64,000 bases of DNA from Sinorhizobium fredii NGR234 (GTDB lineage Bacteria > Pseudomonadota > Alphaproteobacteria > Rhizobiales > Rhizobiaceae). The stretch lies in the NCBI RefSeq assembly GCF_000018545.1, contig NC_012587.1, forward strand, positions 372,001 to 436,000. The letters run 5' to 3'. The stretch's first letter is position 1. Each line of letters begins with the position of its first letter. Both the position numbers and the translations under genes were made by a program. The notes under the pieces were generated by a model that was not told the origin of the DNA, searched no databases, and saw only the letters and a list, made by a program, of their open reading frames with translations. This document shows, in pieces, positions 1,640 to 48,565 of this stretch.

Positions 1640-2461
1640 ATGGAAAAATGGTCCCGCTTCAACGTCGCCTCCGTCGTGCTCGGCTTCGGCTTTCTCTACC
1701 TGCCCATCGTGCTGCTGGTGATCTTCTCTTTCAACGAGTCGAAACTCGTCACCGTCTGGGCCGGTTTTTCGACCAAGTGGTACAGCCAGCTTTGGCACAA
1801 CCAGGGCCTCCTCGATGCCGCCTGGGTGACCATTCGCGTCGGGCTGCTGTCAGCCACCTGCGCGACCGTTCTCGGCACATTGGCGGCAATCGCGCTGGTG
1901 CGCTATTCGCGCTTTCGCGGACGCGTACTTTTCTCCGGCATGGTCTACGCGCCGCTGGTCATGCCGGAGGTGATCACCGGCCTGTCGCTGTTGCTGCTGT
2001 TCGTGGCGATCGGGCTCGATCGCGGTTTCTGGACGATCACGCTCGCCCACATCACCTTCACCATGTGCTTCGTGGCGGTCGTCGTGCAGTCGCGCCTGTT
2101 GAGCTTCGACCAGTCCATCGAGGAGGCGGCGCTCGATCTCGGCGCGACCCCGGTCCGGACCTTCTTCGCCATCACCCTGCCGGTGATCGCGCCGGCGGTT
2201 TTCTCAGGGTGGGTCCTGGCTTTCACGCTGTCGCTCGACGACCTCGTCATCTCGAGTTTCACCACTGGGCCGGGTGCGACGACGCTGCCGATGAAGATCT
2301 ACAGCCAGGTGCGCCTCGGCGTGACGCCGGAGATCAATGCGATCTGCACCATCCTGATCGGCGTGGTCGCACTGGGCGTCGTCGTCGCATCGATCGTCAC
2401 CAAGCGGCGGGAAGTTCAGCGTGAAAGGGACGAGCGCGCCGCCATCGCGGCAATCGGCTAG
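1640..2461 (+). CDS. potI: Polyamine ABC transporter permease PotI
   Basis: Second permease of the importer, 273 aa, with about six membrane segments and an EAA loop EAALDLGATPVRTFFAITLPV. It is the last gene of the operon. Its TAG stop coincides with the left edge of a MITE-like repeat: the TA is the presumed target dinucleotide and the G is the first base of the element. The insertion therefore fixed the present end of the protein. The C-terminus (about 20 charged residues after the last helix) may differ slightly from the uninterrupted ancestor. Confidence 0.9.
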   Translation: MEKWSRFNVASVVLGFGFLYLPIVLLVIFSFNESKLVTVWAGFSTKWYSQLWHNQGLLDAAWVTIRVGLLSATCATVLGTLAAIALVRYSRFRGRVLFSGMVYAPLVMPEVITGLSLLLLFVAIGLDRGFWTITLAHITFTMCFVAVVVQSRLLSFDQSIEEAALDLGATPVRTFFAITLPVIAPAVFSGWVLAFTLSLDDLVISSFTTGPGATTLPMKIYSQVRLGVTPEINAICTILIGVVALGVVVASIVTKRREVQRERDERAAIAAIG

Positions 2462-2731
2462 AGCCTTTCCTGGTTAAATTGAAGCATTCTGCCGGAGCAG
2501 GTTTTCGTCAGGGCAGATGCGATTGTCGAAGGTCGTACCCGAAGGTACGGCCGAGGCGATCGCCTCTGAGCATGGCGGAAAGATGCCCGGCCCTTCGGGT
2601 TGGCTGAAGCGGGCGGCCTCTTTGCTCGGCTGGCTTGGCCGTATGCTTTGGCTACGCCGCGCGCCAGCCGAGCAAACATTCCACTCCGCTTGAGCCAACA
2701 GAATGGTTCAATTTAACCAGGAAAGGCTCTA
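2459..2731. mobile_element. MITE-like element, copy 1 (31-bp TIRs, TA flanks)
   Basis: A 273-bp non-coding element bounded by TA on both sides. Its termini are inverted repeats of about 31 bp starting GAGCCTTTCCTGG, with one mismatch. Internal palindromes (for example TTTGCTCGGCTGG against CCAGCCGAGCAAA) suggest a strongly folded RNA. A second, almost identical copy lies at 46650-46921 in the same orientation. No reading frame for a transposase is present, so it would need a transposase in trans. TA duplication resembles IS630/Tc1-type insertion. It separates the convergent genes potI and the AsmA-like gene, ending 5 bp before the stop of the latter. Confidence 0.85.
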
Positions 2732-2736
2732 AGGCG

Positions 2737-4557
2737 CTATTTCGGAGCGACGAGCACGGAGAGCGGCGAGATGACCGCATTCGGCCACGAGCCGCCAACA
2801 AAGAAGAGAACCGGTTGGTTACCGGTGGGTGCCTCGGTTTTGAGCGTCCCGGCAAGTGCCAGGCTGCCGTTGCGATACGGGATGACGCCGGCAACCGATA
2901 ACTGGCCGGAAGGGCCGACGAAGTCGGCGCGGTCGAGTCGCGCCGTGCCGTTGGCAAAGCTTGCCTTTACGGTCGCGGACTGGAAGTCGAAGCTCGCCTC
3001 GTTCGCTTGCGACAGCGAAAAGAACTCGCCCTTGCGAACGAGATCGGCAAAGGCGGGGGCATCGAAGCCGGCGATGCTGCCATTCGCCAGCGAAAAGCTG
3101 AGATTGCCCGAAAAGTCTCCAGAACCGGCTGCCCAGACGGCGCGCTCGGTTCCGATGTCGATGTTGAGAATTCCGCGGCCGGCCGGAATCGGGCCGGCGA
3201 GGCCGAAGCTGGCGAGCACCGCGGCGAAATTGGCGTCCTTGAGGCGCGCCTGCAGCCGGCCGCCGTGTTCGAGCCCTTGATCCGAGAGCACGACGCGGCC
3301 GCTCAGGCTGCCATTGGCGTAATTGCTGTCGCCGATGTCGAGCGACGCGCGCTTCCCATCGATCAACACCCCTGCGGCCACCTCCGTGAGGTGCAAGGGA
3401 CCGGCGAGGACCTCCTGAGAGGAAAGCCGAATGTCCGTGTGCCATGCGCCGACAAAGGTCTCCGCCAGACGCCACAAACGGTCGTCCCTGCCGAACGGCG
3501 TGAGCGCCGCGACAGGAACGCCGTTGAGGTCGATGCGATCGAAGGCAAGCGTTCCCTCGACGCTCGGCGCCTTGCCGTCCTGCAAGGCGATATCCAGCAC
3601 GCCGGTGGCGCTGGCGCCGCCCATCGTGAACGCCAGATCGTCCAGCTTGAGCGTCTTTTCGCCCGTCGTCACTCTGGTGTCGATGCTAAGCCCGCCGGAA
3701 GGCAGCGTCTCAGTCGACGTGCCCTGGTACCACTGAACGAGCGTTGCGAGCGAGGTCGCGGACATCTGCAGGTGACCCGACGCGAAGGGTACGGATGAAA
3801 GATTGCCGACACCCTCGAAAGAGAAGGTCACGGGCGCCGATGTGATCGAGGTCTTGAGGGAGGCGTTCCGTCTCGCGAAAAGAGCGAGTGGCTCCTCGCA
3901 GACGATCGCCCAGGCAATCTCCTCGTCGCGCAGCCGCGCCGACAGTTGCGCGCTCAATCGCTCGGCGAAGGAGGGCCATTTGATCGTGCCGGAAATTCCG
4001 GCAATGTCGACGTCGTTGCCGCCGGCCGTGCGGTCGAGCACGCGCAGCCGGCCATTGACGATGGCGATATCTCCGAAGGCGGTTTCGCGACCCGAAGCGG
4101 GAGCCTCGGGCGGTGCGAGCCAATGCGGCGTTTGCCAATTGGTCGTGCCGTCCGCCCGGCGCTCGATCGTGATGACGGGATCGACAAGGCTGATGTCCTC
4201 GAGCGTTGGATCGCCGAGAAGGGCCGAAAGCGGGCTGAACGATGCGGTAATGCGGCCAATTTCGGCAAGCGGCCGGGGATCGGGGCCGGTCGATTCGATC
4301 GTCGCCGAAGGCAAGGTTAACAGCAGCTTCGGCCAGAATCGGACCTCCGGTTCACCATTGATCCTGCTCTTGCCCCCCGACCAACTGTCGAGCGTCCGCT
4401 CCATCGTGGCGCGCACGCCGGTTGTCGAAACGAGCAGGGGCAGCGCGGCATTGTAGCCCATGGCAAGAAGGACCCCGACTGCGGCAGACCAGACGAAGTG
4501 GCGGCGCCGCAGACGCAGCCTCAGGATGCGCGATATTTTCCGGATAGGTCTGGTCAT
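2737..4557 (-). CDS. AsmA-family protein (outer-envelope biogenesis type)
   Basis: A 606-aa protein with one N-terminal membrane helix (about residues 22-45, AAVGVLLAMGYNAALPLLV) followed by a long periplasmic beta-rich region, as in AsmA/TamB-like proteins thought to move phospholipids between membranes. The C-terminal part contains the AsmA-type pattern GRGILNIDIGTE...DFSGNLSFSLANGSIAGFD. The start chosen is ATG at 4557, before MTRPIRKISRI; a longer frame upstream has poor sequence. It is divergent from the acetoacetyl-CoA synthetase gene and convergent with potI. Family is fairly certain from the pattern; precise role unknown. Confidence 0.75.
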   Translation of the reverse strand: MTRPIRKISRILRLRLRRRHFVWSAAVGVLLAMGYNAALPLLVSTTGVRATMERTLDSWSGGKSRINGEPEVRFWPKLLLTLPSATIESTGPDPRPLAEIGRITASFSPLSALLGDPTLEDISLVDPVITIERRADGTTNWQTPHWLAPPEAPASGRETAFGDIAIVNGRLRVLDRTAGGNDVDIAGISGTIKWPSFAERLSAQLSARLRDEEIAWAIVCEEPLALFARRNASLKTSITSAPVTFSFEGVGNLSSVPFASGHLQMSATSLATLVQWYQGTSTETLPSGGLSIDTRVTTGEKTLKLDDLAFTMGGASATGVLDIALQDGKAPSVEGTLAFDRIDLNGVPVAALTPFGRDDRLWRLAETFVGAWHTDIRLSSQEVLAGPLHLTEVAAGVLIDGKRASLDIGDSNYANGSLSGRVVLSDQGLEHGGRLQARLKDANFAAVLASFGLAGPIPAGRGILNIDIGTERAVWAAGSGDFSGNLSFSLANGSIAGFDAPAFADLVRKGEFFSLSQANEASFDFQSATVKASFANGTARLDRADFVGPSGQLSVAGVIPYRNGSLALAGTLKTEAPTGNQPVLFFVGGSWPNAVISPLSVLVAPK

Positions 4558-4724
4558 TTCGGTCGGGTCGGCATCGCCTCGGTGAAACCGTTTGGATAGG
4601 CCCTGAGGAGGGCAAATGCAACTGACATGGAAATGTCGCCCACGCGGCTGCGGCGCTGCCATGCACGCTGTTTATCTTGCGTTGCAGCATGGTATAGAAC
4701 AGAGCCAGACGAGTGGAGGAACGC

Positions 4725-33252: not shown

Positions 33253-33360
33253 AGAGCGGGATGAGGAAAAGTGTAAGCGGTTTTCCGCCCGCATCTCGCT
33301 CTAACTCATTAGAATCGATCACGATGATTTTGGATCAATCGACCCAAAATCATCGTGATC
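33253..33360. repeat. RIME1-like mosaic repeat, intact (108 bp)
   Basis: Two adjoining palindromic blocks: AGAGCGGGATGAGGAAAAG...CGCATCTCGCTCT (33253-33302) and GATCACGATGATTTTGG...CCCAAAATCATCGTGATC (33317-33360). Length 108 bp and two large palindromes agree with the published description of RIME1 as I recall it. It supplies the empty-site reference (TA at 33302-33303) for the MITE insertion at 46650. Confidence 0.8.
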
Positions 33361-45312: not shown

Positions 45313-46046
45313 CGAAATCCCCGATCGGCGGCAACCGCAGCGGCCGCAAGCTCGGCCAGAAGGTCAAGAAGGGCAAGCTCAAGGCGTCGTCGCGCCGCTG
45401 GCTGGAGCGGCACATCAACGATCCCTACGTGCAGCGCGCCCAGCTCGAAGGCTATCGCGCCCGGGCGGCCTTCAAGCTGCTGGAGATCGACGAGAAGCAC
45501 AAGATTCTCGCCGGCGCCCGCCGCATCATCGATCTCGGCGCCGCACCCGGAAGCTGGTCGCAGATCGCCGCCAAGGTGACGAACTCGACCGACGCGGACC
45601 CGCGTGTGGCGGCGATCGACTTTCTCGAGATGGACCCGATCCCGGGCGTCCGCTTCCTGCAGCTGGATTTCCTCGATCCTGAGGCGCCGGAAAAGCTGAA
45701 GGAAGCGATCGGCGGGACGCCCGACCTCGTCCTCTCCGACATGGCGGCGCCGACCACCGGCCACCGCCAGACCGACCATCTGCGCACCATGCATCTCTGC
45801 GAGGTGGCGGCGCATTTCGCCGTCGACGTGCTGGCCAAGGGCGGGCACTTTCTCGCAAAAACCTTCCAGGGCGGCACGGAACGCGACCTTCTCAACATGC
45901 TGAAGCAGAATTTCAGCCAGGTCATCCACGTGAAGCCCGCCTCGTCGCGCACCGAATCGGTCGAGATGTTCCTGCTCGCCAAGGGGTTCAAGGGGCGCCG
46001 GAAGGCTGAAACCGAAGAGCCGGCGGAAGACGCCGCGGCGGAGTAG
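45309..46046 (+). CDS. rlmE: 23S rRNA 2'-O-methyltransferase RlmE (FtsJ/RrmJ)
   Basis: A 245-aa SAM-dependent methyltransferase that modifies the A-loop of 23S rRNA (Um2552 in E. coli). The SAM site is [17 protein letters not shown]; the K-D-K-E catalytic tetrad is visible as K in [10 protein letters not shown] in [10 protein letters not shown] in FLAKTFQGG and E in SRTESVEMF. The N-terminus is basic (about 40 residues) and the C-terminus acidic. It overlaps ppx by ATGA, and a VOC gene starts 3 bp after its stop. Confidence 0.95.
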
Positions 46047-46049
46047 TCG

Positions 46050-46433
46050 ATGCTGCTTTACGTGACGGTCGGCACCAACGATTTAGAACGCGCTGGCGCG
46101 TTCTATGATGCCGTGCTTCCGACCCTTGGCTACCGCCGCCAGCGGCAGGACGAAACCGAGATCGGCTACGGCGCAGACGGCGATGTGCGCGTCCGCTTCT
46201 GGGTGGTCACCCCGTTCAACCGCGAGCCTGCCACCTATGGCAACGGCGTGAGCATCGCGCTCGCGGCCGAGACGCGGGGCGCCGTCGATGCCTTCCATGC
46301 GGCGGCGCTGGCTGCCGGCGGTGCCGACGAGGGCGCGCCGGGGTTGCGGCCGTTCCACGCGCATTTTTATGGCGCCTGGGTCCGCGATCTCGACGGCAAC
46401 AAGATTGCCGCCGTCTGCGAGCGCCCGGAATAG
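46050..46433 (+). CDS. VOC-family (glyoxalase/bleomycin-resistance-like) protein
   Basis: A 127-aa vicinal-oxygen-chelate fold protein. It has the paired module pattern VTVGTNDLERAGAFYDAVLPTLGYRR and AHFYGAWVRDLDGNKIAAVCE with a metal-type H/E layout. Substrate unknown. It starts 3 bp after rlmE and is probably translated from the same message. Confidence 0.85.
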   Translation: MLLYVTVGTNDLERAGAFYDAVLPTLGYRRQRQDETEIGYGADGDVRVRFWVVTPFNREPATYGNGVSIALAAETRGAVDAFHAAALAAGGADEGAPGLRPFHAHFYGAWVRDLDGNKIAAVCERPE

Positions 46434-46477
46434 AGCACGATGCTGCCCGGGCGGCTTTGTGAGGGCGGTTGGCGGAG

Positions 46478-46530
46478 CCCACCCCCCTCTGCCCTGCCGG
46501 GCATCTCCCCCACAAGGAGGGAGATCGACT
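46478..46530. repeat. REP-like intergenic palindrome
   Basis: Contains CCCTGCCGGGCATCTCCC and a facing GGGAGAT arm (ATCTCCC / GGGAGAT). Blocks like this are common between rhizobial genes. It opens the 545-bp gene-free interval 46434-46978, which is made almost entirely of repeats. Confidence 0.6.
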
Positions 46531-46589
46531 CGCGGCGACCCCCTCGTTCCTGCATTGGCTTTGCAGCACTACGGCATCCGCGGCCTTAC

Positions 46590-46970
46590 ATCACGATGAT
46601 TTTAGGTCAGACCGACCTAAAATCATGAACGTGATCGATTCCAACAGGTTAGAGCCTTTCCTGGTTAAATTGAAGCATTCTGCCGAGCAGGTTTTCGTCA
46701 GGGCAGAGGCGATTGTCGAAGGTCGTACCCGAAGGTACGGCCGAGGCGATCGCCTCTGATCCTGGCGGAAAGATGCCCGGCCCTTCGGGTTGGCTGAAGC
46801 GGGCGGCCTGTTTGCTCGGCTGGCTTGGCCGTATGCGTTGGCTACGCCGCGCGCCAGCCGAGCAAACATTCCACTCCGCTTAAGCCAACAGAATGGTTCA
46901 ATTTAACCAGGAAAGGCTCTAGAGCGGGATGCGGGCGGAAAACCGCACACACTTTTCCTCATCCCGCTCT
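46590..46970. repeat. RIME1-like repeat split by the MITE-like element
   Basis: In reverse orientation to the copy at 33253. The block ATCACGATGATTTTAGG...CGTGATCGATTC (46590-46649) is followed by the MITE and then by GAGCGGGATGCGGGCGG...CATCCCGCTCT (46922-46970). Removing the MITE and one TA restores a near-normal RIME1-like unit. Confidence 0.8.
46650..46921. mobile_element. MITE-like element, copy 2
   Basis: A 272-bp element with the same TIRs and internal sequence as 2459-2731, differing at a few positions and by one base deletion near the left TIR (CTGCCGAGC versus CTGCCGGAGC). Flanked by TA at both ends within a RIME1-like repeat. High identity between copies implies recent movement. 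Confidence 0.88.
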
Positions 46971-46978
46971 ATTGAACG

Positions 46979-48388
46979 TCACTTACCCGCGGTCGCCTCG
47001 GCTTCCCTGAGCGCCTTTCGATGGCCGGAGACGGAAGCGCCGGCATTCTTCGCCATGGTCAGAAAGGGGATCGCCGCCAGCACGTTGGCGACCGCGATGA
47101 TCATGAAGGCGATGTGGAAATCTTCAAGCGCCAGTGGCCCGCCGCCGATCGCCGTCTGGATTTCCAGGATCGCGCCCGCCACCGCCACGCCCAAAGCGAG
47201 ACTGATCTGCTGCAGCACGGCGCTCATCGATGTCGCCTTGCTGGCGTCCGCGTCGTCGATATCGGCGAAGGAGAGCGCGTTGACACTGGTGAAGAAGAAG
47301 GAGCGGGCGAAACCGGCGATAAGCAGGATCGAGATCATGACGAGGTAAGGCGTCGCCGGCGTGAAGAAGCCGTTGGTGAACGTGGTGGCGGCGGCGATGA
47401 CGGCGGCAATGATCAGCGTCGTGCGGAAGCCGGCAAAGGCGAGAACGCGGCGGGCGAGGAATTTTGTGGTAATGGCGCCGACGGCGCCGATGAAGGTGAT
47501 CAGCCCCGACTGGAACGGATTGAGTCCGAAACCGATCTGCAGCATCAGCGGCATCAGGAACGGCACGGCGCCGACGGAAATGCGGAAGACCGTGCCGCCG
47601 ATCGAGGCGGCGCGGAAGGCGCTGTCGCGAAACAGCCGGAGGTCGAGCACCGGGGCGGCATGGCGGCGGGCGTGGAAGATGTAAAGGAAGGTCGCTGCGA
47701 CGCCGGCCGAGACGGAGGCGATGCCGACCGCCGGCGGCAGGGCCGGCAGGCTGATGACGGAAAGGCCGAAGACGATCCCCGACGCGGCGATGCCGCCGAG
47801 CAGGAAGCCGAGAATATCGACCGGCGGCGGGTTATGTCGCTCCATCTCGGGCAGGTAGATGCCCGAGAGCACATAGCCGGCAATACCGACCGGCACATTG
47901 ATCAAGAAGATCCAGTGCCAGGAGAAATAGGTGGTGATGAAGCCGCCGAGCGGCGGGCCGGCCAGCGGGCCGACAAGGGCCGGGATGGTGAGCAGCGCCA
48001 TGGCCGAGACGAGCTCGCTGCGCGGCGTGCCGCGCACCAGCACGAGGCGCGCCACCGGCGTCATCATCGCGCCGCCCATGCCCTGAAGAAAGCGTGAGAG
48101 AACGAAGGACAGCAGGCTGTCGGCGGCGGCACAGAAGACAGAGCCGGCGATGAAGACGAGCATCGCCGCGCGGAAGATGCGCTTGGCACCGAAGCGGTCG
48201 GCCATCCAGCCGCTCAAGGGAATGAAGATCGCGAGCGCCACCATGTAGGCGGTGAGCGCCAGTTTCAGCGTGATCGGCCCGACGCCGATATCATGCGCGA
48301 TCGCCGGCAGCGACGTCGAAATGACGGTGGAATCCATCTGCTCCATGAAGAGAGCGACAGCGAGGATCATCGGGACGATGCGATTCAT
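46979..48388 (-). CDS. MFS drug:H+ antiporter (DHA2 type)
   Basis: A 469-aa exporter of the EmrB/QacA (14-helix) DHA2 group. The N-terminal helix reads IVPMILAVALFMEQMDSTVISTSLP with the conserved D and T residues; motif A is GWMADRFGAKRIF; motif C-like sequence is VGPLAGPPLGGFITTYFSWHWIFLINVPVG. Start at ATG 48388; a longer frame upstream has no transporter features. It is divergent from the MBL-fold gene. Substrate unknown. Confidence 0.88.
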   Translation of the reverse strand: MNRIVPMILAVALFMEQMDSTVISTSLPAIAHDIGVGPITLKLALTAYMVALAIFIPLSGWMADRFGAKRIFRAAMLVFIAGSVFCAAADSLLSFVLSRFLQGMGGAMMTPVARLVLVRGTPRSELVSAMALLTIPALVGPLAGPPLGGFITTYFSWHWIFLINVPVGIAGYVLSGIYLPEMERHNPPPVDILGFLLGGIAASGIVFGLSVISLPALPPAVGIASVSAGVAATFLYIFHARRHAAPVLDLRLFRDSAFRAASIGGTVFRISVGAVPFLMPLMLQIGFGLNPFQSGLITFIGAVGAITTKFLARRVLAFAGFRTTLIIAAVIAAATTFTNGFFTPATPYLVMISILLIAGFARSFFFTSVNALSFADIDDADASKATSMSAVLQQISLALGVAVAGAILEIQTAIGGGPLALEDFHIAFMIIAVANVLAAIPFLTMAKNAGASVSGHRKALREAEATAGK

Positions 48389-48565
48389 GAGAGGCTCTGG
48401 ATGCGGGGTCGGCGTCCGGTAGACGGTTCCGGTGGCTTTGTCGGGGCAAAACCGGCGATTGCAGATCAAAAGCCTGTGATCCGGCTGACCTTTTCTGTCA
48501 AGGCCGCTACTTCTTGCCTGCCGGCGCACGACAGTAGGGGCAGCGCCAATCAACAGGAGCGATCA

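What the first reader, a model, noticed from the sequence alone, without database searches (positions are those of the whole stretch)
46590..46970. A MITE-like element has split a RIME1-like repeat exactly at TA, with an empty site in the same window
Sequence shows: an intact RIME1-like unit at 33253-33360 reads (minus strand) GATTCTAATGAGT-TA-GAGCGAG. The disrupted unit reads GATTCCAACAGGT-TA, then the 272-bp element, then TA-GAGCGGG. Excising the element plus one TA restores the RIME1 unit. The element has 31-bp terminal inverted repeats with one mismatch. Established knowledge: IS630/Tc1-type elements and their MITEs duplicate a TA target. Inference: this is a mobile, non-autonomous element, and one mosaic repeat family nests inside another.
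Basis: partly seen in the sequence, partly recalled or inferred. Interest (0 to 1): 0.75.

Follow-up and report, generated by a model that had tools for sequence, protein, structure and literature searches.

The report
Mobile DNA hairpin at gene ends
A 272-letter piece of DNA without a gene has jumped into another repeat in a nodule bacterium; many of its relatives in other rhizobia sit exactly on the stop codons of genes, where the protein stays unchanged because the piece itself begins with a stop codon.

Summary
A 272-bp element (46650-46921, both TAs counted; 33-bp inverted ends, one mismatch) splits a RIME1-like unit at TTAG. Joining the flanks with one TA gives a unit that aligns without a break to all 30 RIME1 copies fetched. 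The element is a MITE, a non-autonomous transposon, of IS630 type: five full copies in this genome (one more in the window, 2459-2731), relatives in Sinorhizobium and Rhizobium. Of 73 copies, 68 have C/T before and A/G after the ends (target YTAR). Strains of S. fredii and close relatives in the R. leguminosarum group show empty sites with a single TA. A group of ~1,050-bp IS630 elements shares its ends (up to 23 of 25 bases) and target. Beyond the finding: (1) 38 of 72 sites, against 163 of 955 control sites, are native stop codons, mostly between convergent genes; the MITE's leading TAG restores the stop. (2) Nesting goes both ways: RIME-like two-hairpin repeats also sit inside MITE copies. 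(3) The element has a conserved branched fold with paired changes. Not found: an empty allele of this very site, or a close partner transposase in this genome.

The parts
46650..46921 (+). MITE copy, 272 bp counting the TA at each end
   Evidence: one of five full copies in the genome, identical over 272 bp to C3:1304292-1304563
46650..46682 (+). left terminal inverted repeat (with TA)
   Evidence: resembles IS630-group ends, best 22/25
46889..46921 (-). right terminal inverted repeat (with TA)
46682..46781 (+). first internal hairpin arm of the conserved fold
   Evidence: helices 2 and 3; window positions derived from alignment columns 35-139
46782..46788 (+). short hairpin at the junction; in other lineages this slot holds a two-hairpin insert of about 80-105 bp
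46789..46889 (+). second internal hairpin arm, changed on both strands together between lineages
   Evidence: helices 5 and 6
46588..46649 (+). left part of the split RIME1-like unit
46920..46971 (+). right part of the split RIME1-like unit (begins with the duplicated TA)
33253..33360 (-). intact RIME1-like unit, two palindromes, with TTAG at the place where the other unit is split
2459..2731 (+). second MITE copy in the window (97%), target CTAA
1640..2461 (+). open frame whose stop codon TAG is the first three bases of the second MITE copy
2737..4662 (-). open frame converging on the second MITE copy
46050..46433 (+). open frame to the left, pointing towards the RIME1-MITE block
   Evidence: its 3' part is conserved in relatives
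46979..48553 (-). open frame to the right, pointing towards the RIME1-MITE block (convergent)
   Evidence: its 3' part is conserved in relatives

Best explanation
The element is a MITE: a short non-autonomous transposon with no transposase of its own. It is moved in trans by transposases of a group of roughly 1,050-bp IS630-family elements whose ends also begin TAGAGC. By analogy with ISY100, the transposase cuts it out, its 3' ends attack the TA inside a YTAR sequence, and the TA is duplicated. In this genome one copy went into the TTAG built into a RIME1 repeat. Because YTAR contains TAR and the MITE begins with TAG, an insertion into the stop codon of a gene leaves the protein unchanged. 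Copies are therefore found at stop codons, mostly between convergent genes, while insertions that break genes or promoters are lost. Shown by sequence: target, duplication, empty sites, ends shared with the IS group, stop-codon and convergent bias. Inferred: trans-mobilisation, cut-and-paste, and selection as the cause of the bias.
For: Target and duplication: TA at both ends in 59 of 73 copies, C/T before and A/G after in 68 of 73, against YTAR in 9.3% of 870 TAs of the window. Empty sites with a single TA: S. fredii CCBAU 45436 filled, CCBAU 25509, SMH12 and CCBAU 83666 empty; R. leguminosarum Tp73_4 filled, R. indicum JKLM 12A2 and WSM1325 empty; R. leguminosarum Ta6 filled, R. indigoferae CIP 108029, R. 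leguminosarum Norway and R. beringeri TP6 empty. Recent spread: two copies in this genome identical over 272 bp; in G009, 22 of 23 copies are 97.5-99.6% identical to their consensus. Partner: an IS630 copy in G009 (L125, 979-2028; main frame NF033545 159 bits, cut-off 100; DDE_3) has a left end TAGAGCGTTTCCGGGTTTGATTGAA; 23/25 to the R. leguminosarum MITE end; the window copy's end has 22/25 to another group member (L231); the best of 1,740 TA-anchored 25-mers of the window other than the MITE ends is 14/25. IS copies of that group: C/T before and A/G after in 56 of 56 with both flanks readable. Stop codons: 38 of 72 independent sites against 163 of 955 control YTAR sites outside genes, OR 5.4; Mantel-Haenszel OR 4.3 over target tetramers; placebo phases 3 and 1 of 72; same C-terminus with and without the MITE in two genes. 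Inside coding-like frames: 0 of 73 against 164 of 1,119 control sites.
Against: The window's genome holds no close relative of the partner transposase: its best near-full-length matches are 49% identical, plus a 131-residue stretch at 64%, and the end that I could locate of its six-copy IS630 differs (TAAAGCGTGTCG...). G009's own MITE ends match the IS ends less well than other lineages do (best 19/25 over 122 IS ends). No empty allele of this locus was found. Fourteen of 73 copies lack TA on one or both sides. A cruder count put 19 of 73 joined sites in open frames of 200 codons or more, and up to four coding-like runs reach the junction out of phase, so a few copies may disturb genes; in BIHB 1217 (L053) an annotated hydrolase gene runs 19 bases into the MITE. 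The 73 copies were chosen mostly for full length, and the control comes from two genomes only. No transposition was tested.
Confidence: 0.87

Rival explanations
1. The nest at 46650 arose by recombination between repeats that share TAGAGC (the second RIME1 palindrome and the MITE both start with it), not by transposition.
For: RIME1 reads TTAGAGC at the junction and the MITE begins TAGAGC, so a crossover in the shared bases would give the same join. The R. leguminosarum Tp73_4 site likewise reads TAGAGCATG when empty.
Against: By inspection only 3 of 73 right flanks begin GAGC and 1 of 73 left flanks ends GCTC, and the S. fredii and Ta6 sites duplicate only TA in other DNA. Recombination also does not explain terminal repeats shared with an IS630 group.
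Confidence: 0.05
2. The element is mainly a structured RNA or DNA domain kept for a host function (for example a terminator or processing site between convergent genes), and mobility is only its means of spread.
For: Fold -192 kcal/mol, z -17. Consensus of 107 pairs, 24 with changes on both sides, 128 such cells against a mean of 36 in shuffles. Thirty-seven of 72 sites lie between convergent frames against 124 of 955 control sites.
Against: Thirteen of the 24 doubly changed pairs lie in the terminal repeats, where transposase binding alone would keep the two ends alike. Arm-to-arm correction of imperfect palindromes could explain the rest (recalled mechanism). The convergent bias is the same in the IS group (17 of 31 classified) and in the recent G009 copies (12 of 21), so it needs no special MITE function. 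Presence differs between strains. No Rfam family matched above its gathering score.
Confidence: 0.2
3. The copies are old, vertically inherited repeats with no movement in living lineages.
For: Many copies are diverged, 14 of 73 lack a TA, and the family spans two genera.
Against: Presence/absence within S. fredii, identical copies at unlinked sites, and the G009 burst.
Confidence: 0.02

Closest known systems
RUP of Streptococcus pneumoniae with IS630-Spn1 (passages read in PMC2229807)
   Same: short intergenic repeat with terminal repeats like those of an IS630-family element and insertion at TA
   Different: 107 bp and pneumococcal; here 272 bp, rhizobial, with a branched fold and a bias to stop codons between convergent genes (whether RUP has such a bias was not looked at)
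ISY100 and the Tc1/mariner/IS630 family (passages read in PMC2170065)
   Same: TA target and TA duplication; used here as the model for the chemistry
   Different: ISY100 is autonomous; it was not compared by sequence here
IS630-group elements of rhizobia and relatives (L125, L131; 60 of the 80 loci L159-L238 with ends located)
   Same: ends beginning TAGAGC in nearly all, target YTAR
   Different: ~1,050 bp, encode a transposase in two frames (L125), ends unequal; no ISfinder name was looked up
RIME1 (Osteras et al. 1995, J Bacteriol; cited within PMC2573895; the paper itself not seen, its description recalled)
   Same: host of this insertion; two palindromes, about 108 bp
   Different: a different repeat family; the MITE is not a RIME
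BIME/REP mosaics (PMC2817692, seen in a search listing only)
   Same: palindromic repeats mixed in intergenic DNA
   Different: mobilised, where known, by RAYT transposases without TA duplication (recalled)

Membership tests
IS630-type MITE | short element with terminal inverted repeats and too short to hold a transposase | tested here: met
   272 bp, 33-bp ends at 97%; lengths 235-375 bp over 73 copies
IS630-type MITE | TA target duplication | tested here: met
   one TA in empty sites, two in filled sites; 59 of 73 copies with TA at both ends
IS630-type MITE | ends shared with an autonomous IS630 element | tested here: met
   up to 23/25 bases, median 17-18 over 122 IS ends; null maximum 14/25; main transposase frame matches NF033545 and PF13358 above cut-off, the first frame NF033545 below it
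IS630-type MITE | many dispersed copies, polymorphic between strains | tested here: met
   match at E<=0.001 in 28 of 33 Sinorhizobium genomes, some only fragments; 211 of 72,556 plasmid records, 115 with 80% or more of the element; empty sites
IS630-type MITE | moved by that transposase in trans | not testable with these tools
   needs a transposition assay
RIME1 (for the host repeat) | about 108 bp with two large palindromes, many copies in rhizobia | tested here: met
   108 bp, two palindromes; 40 of 89 candidate places scored in this genome, a few of them partial; other rhizobia not searched with it
RIME1 (for the host repeat) | sequence match to the published RIME1 | not tested
Rfam RNA family | match above gathering score | tested here: not met
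   in 46000-47500 the best match has 26 bits against a cut-off of 90

The most novel reading that the evidence does not exclude
This is a mobile 3' end for genes. The MITE family (and less strongly its IS630 parents) settles in native stop codons of convergent gene pairs because its first codon is TAG, so the protein is untouched. It then gives both genes a very stable branched hairpin that may end or process their transcripts, with a slot in which other palindromic repeats are exchanged. Such elements would be building the intergenic mosaic of rhizobial genomes at gene ends rather than only littering it.
Probability: 0.2. Interest if true: 0.7.

Novelty: new member of a known kind. Interest (0 to 1): 0.5.

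Why it matters
It gives a likely mechanism and mobiliser for one layer of the intergenic mosaic repeats of rhizobia. It also shows a simple rule with possible wide reach: an element that begins with TAG and targets YTAR can enter stop codons without changing proteins. Filled and empty alleles in sister strains make the effect of a large hairpin at gene ends directly testable.

Tried and rejected
Orthologous empty allele of 46650: six relatives were aligned; none shows the RIME1, so they do not show the site before insertion. Partner search by TIR pairs at IS distance: in the matches listed (one search is a capped list) I saw no such pair other than between MITE copies; the partner was found through the IS630 transposase family instead (30 loci examined of 38 matches). 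The lone TIR at C2:1938445: no second end seen; its open frames were listed but not scanned against families. Rfam: nothing above cut-off.

Excision footprint: R. leguminosarum ATCC 14479 (L121) reads CGCGC-TC-TAGTCC where R. leguminosarum Norway and R. beringeri TP6 read CGCGC-TAGTCC and the filled strain ends ...GGCTCTAGTCC. It could be a two-base remnant of the MITE, but it is a single case, it lacks the first TA expected for a classical footprint, and a slip at the shared GC would do the same.

Preference for repeats beyond their targets: not significant. RIME1 3 of 72 against 15 of 1,119, p 0.09; two-hairpin repeat 8 of 72 against 60 of 1,119, p 0.06, all eight in G009. One search, with another score limit, also gave three RIME1 cases, but with L052 in place of L099. 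Stop-codon preference of the IS group alone: 13 stop, 32 other, 1 inside of 46 (14 more dropped for short flanks), p 0.07 against control. A first count with a simpler coding rule gave 40 of 73 MITE copies, 9 of 71 YTAR sites of the window and 10 of 46 IS copies at stops.

Literature: searches listed no paper that I recognised as describing this family. The library lacks most subscription papers; passages of PMC2573895 mention Sm, RIME and ABC repeats of S. meliloti and even unannotated ones, whose sequences I did not see, so the family may have been noted before.

Dropped rows and faults: L073 as a duplicate of site L070; 19 of 80 IS loci without a located TIR pair and one false pair, L222; control YTAR sites at MITE-type ends dropped but not. 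In one search the right end of L125 was cut two bases off, so only its left end is cited. The join left out the TA; hold the right one.

Full report
What is there. The window is G000:C3:372001-436000 of a 6,891,900-base, three-contig genome. By recall, the contig sizes are those of Sinorhizobium fredii NGR234; no call names it. At 46650-46921 lies a 272-bp element with 33-bp inverted ends (97%, TA included). It interrupts a RIME1-like repeat at TTAG. The two flanks joined with one TA align in one segment across the junction to all 30 RIME1 copies fetched from this genome, and 28 of these have TTAG at the very point of insertion. A second copy of the element lies at 2459-2731.

Family. The genome holds five full copies (97-100% to the window copy) and one solitary end. 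The window copy and the one at C3:1304292 are identical over 272 bp. Matches occur in 28 of 33 genomes of the genus, some only as fragments, and in 211 of 72,556 plasmid records, 151 Rhizobium, 59 Sinorhizobium and one Agrobacterium. I collected 73 copies with flanks from fetched loci, chosen mostly for full length, 23 of them from G009. Fifty-nine have TA at both ends. Sixty-eight have C or T before and A or G after, whereas 9.3% of the 870 TAs of the window are YTAR.

Mobility. At three sites related strains show the DNA without the element and with a single TA. S. fredii CCBAU 45436 is filled and CCBAU 25509, SMH12 and CCBAU 83666 are empty. R. leguminosarum Tp73_4 is filled and R. indicum JKLM 12A2 and WSM1325 are empty. 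R. leguminosarum Ta6 is filled and R. indigoferae CIP 108029, R. leguminosarum Norway and R. beringeri TP6 are empty. Two further fetched relatives of the last site (L157, L158) are too diverged at the junction to judge, and ATCC 14479 (L121) carries two extra bases, a possible but single excision footprint. Of the 23 copies in G009, 22 are 97.5-99.6% identical to their consensus and one is 82%, which I read as a recent burst. At the finding's own locus no such allele was found: six relatives lack the RIME1 as well.

Mobiliser. Among 30 loci of IS630-type transposases from six Sinorhizobium genomes (38 matches), the G009 copies L125 and L131 have TA-anchored ends beginning TAGAGCGTTTC, and an IS630 in G022 has ends TAGAGCACG/TAGAGCGCG. 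The L125 transposase is read in two overlapping frames with a run of A where they meet (frameshifting is inferred). The main frame matches IS630 and DDE_3 models above cut-off; the first frame matches the IS630 model below cut-off. A scan of genome contigs returned 80 relatives (582 confirmed, best 80 kept). In 60 of the 80, TA-anchored ends starting TAG were located, mostly about 1,050 bp apart, nearly all beginning TAGAGC. Fifty-six of 56 with both flanks readable have C/T before and A/G after. The MITE ends match this group at up to 23 of 25 bases (R. leguminosarum MITE against L125 left end) and 22 of 25 for the window copy; the median over 122 IS ends is 17-18. The best of 1,740 TA-anchored 25-mers in the window other than the MITE ends is 14. 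The window's own genome has no member closer than about 49% over most of the length, apart from a 64% stretch of 131 residues, so its copies are probably stranded or were moved by a partner since lost (inference). The chemistry is taken from ISY100, where cut-and-paste into TA with TA duplication was shown in vitro (passages read, PMC2170065).

Landing on stop codons. YTAR contains TAR, which is a stop codon in one frame on each strand, and the MITE begins with TAG. The LacI-type gene beside the Tp73_4 copy ends ...PRS* with the MITE and in WSM1325 without it; the alpha-L-fucosidase gene beside the Ta6 copy ends ...GIQD* with the MITE and in two empty strains, where the stop is TAA in one and TAG in the other. 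In the window, the open frame 1640-2461 ends in the first TAG of the second MITE copy. With a codon model trained on 159,686 codons from 800 kb of G009 and G000, 38 of 72 independent MITE sites are native stop codons of coding-like frames and 34 are other non-coding sites. Of 1,119 control YTAR sites, 163 are stops, 792 other and 164 inside genes. The odds ratio for stop against other is 5.4, p 5e-11, and 4.3 when stratified by target tetramer, p 4e-9. Within G009 alone it is 8 of 23 against 81 of 533, OR 3.0, p 0.02. Twelve settings of the cut-offs keep the odds ratio between 6.0 and 9.1 against all control targets, genes included. A placebo with the reading phase moved by one or two bases finds 3 and 1 of 72 MITE sites (157 and 202 of 1,111 control sites). 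The gene may lie at either end of the MITE (15 left, 19 right, 4 both). Against a perfect rule: a cruder count placed 19 of 73 joined sites in open frames of 200 codons or more without a coding test, and an annotated hydrolase gene runs into one copy (L053).

Convergent genes. Thirty-seven of 72 sites lie between convergent coding-like frames, 23 between tandem and 4 between divergent ones, 8 unclear; control sites outside genes give 124, 464, 168 and 199. The G009 burst (12 of 21 classified) and the IS group (17 of 31 classified, 15 unclear) show the same bias. The stop-codon share is lower in the G009 burst (8 of 23) than in the other copies (30 of 49; p 0.045) and in the IS group (13 of 45 outside genes). 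I read this as selection that removes insertions harming genes, promoters and operons, with stop codons of convergent genes as the safest places; targeting cannot be excluded, and the equal convergent bias in recent copies speaks for fast selection or for targeting. The finding's own site also lies between convergent open frames (46050-46433 + and 46979-48553 -).

Structure and modules. The element folds at -192 kcal/mol, z -17. In 31 aligned copies, 97.8% of cells of a 107-pair consensus are paired, and 24 pairs have changes on both sides (128 cells against a mean of 36 in shuffles and 8-17 in slid controls). Thirteen of those pairs are in the terminal repeats and 11 inside. Transposase binding could explain the first, and either selection on the fold or arm-to-arm correction the second; the data do not decide. 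Where most copies have the short hairpin CCCTTCGGG or a close variant, copies in G024 and G011 carry a two-hairpin insert of about 100 bp, and three Rhizobium copies carry a different two-hairpin insert of about 80 bp; one of these (strain 23B) is at the same site as the Ta6 copy without it. The first insert is itself an abundant repeat: 41-47 matches in each of six genomes, with only 40 of 109-557 candidates scored in each. In S. fredii CCBAU 25509 an insert that looks like its reverse complement sits at another point of the MITE (by eye). Conversely, eight G009 MITEs touch such repeats. So nesting goes both ways.

Verdict. A well-supported IS630-type MITE family, closest in kind to RUP of pneumococcus. 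The event described is ordinary transposition into an inbuilt target. The wider pattern, residence at stop codons of convergent genes, is the point of interest.

Noticed in passing
L110:633-740 and many places in G000, G009, G011, G016, G022, G024: An abundant two-hairpin repeat of about 105 bp with a linker like that of RIME1 (CAATTCAAAG against CGATTCTAAT); possibly one superfamily of two-palindrome repeats. The likeness of the linkers was judged by eye.
   Followed up: partly
L124 (R. johnstonii TP5), about 875-1733: An IS5-family element has gone into the CTAG at the right junction of a MITE copy, with CTAG on both sides, so MITE junctions serve as targets for other elements.
   Followed up: partly
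L055 (S. medicae ml18), left of 1501: The end of a multicopy element annotated as IS630 in other records lies at the left TA of the MITE copy.
   Followed up: no
L108 and L109: Two 235/236-bp copies have lost the tip of the first internal hairpin arm (by eye).
   Followed up: no
window 46480-46520: An inverted copy of this stretch is found further along in G010 and G021, where the window has the RIME1-MITE block (by eye); the block seems to have replaced part of another palindromic repeat.
   Followed up: partly
L121:595-606: Two extra bases at an otherwise empty site, a possible excision footprint.
   Followed up: partly
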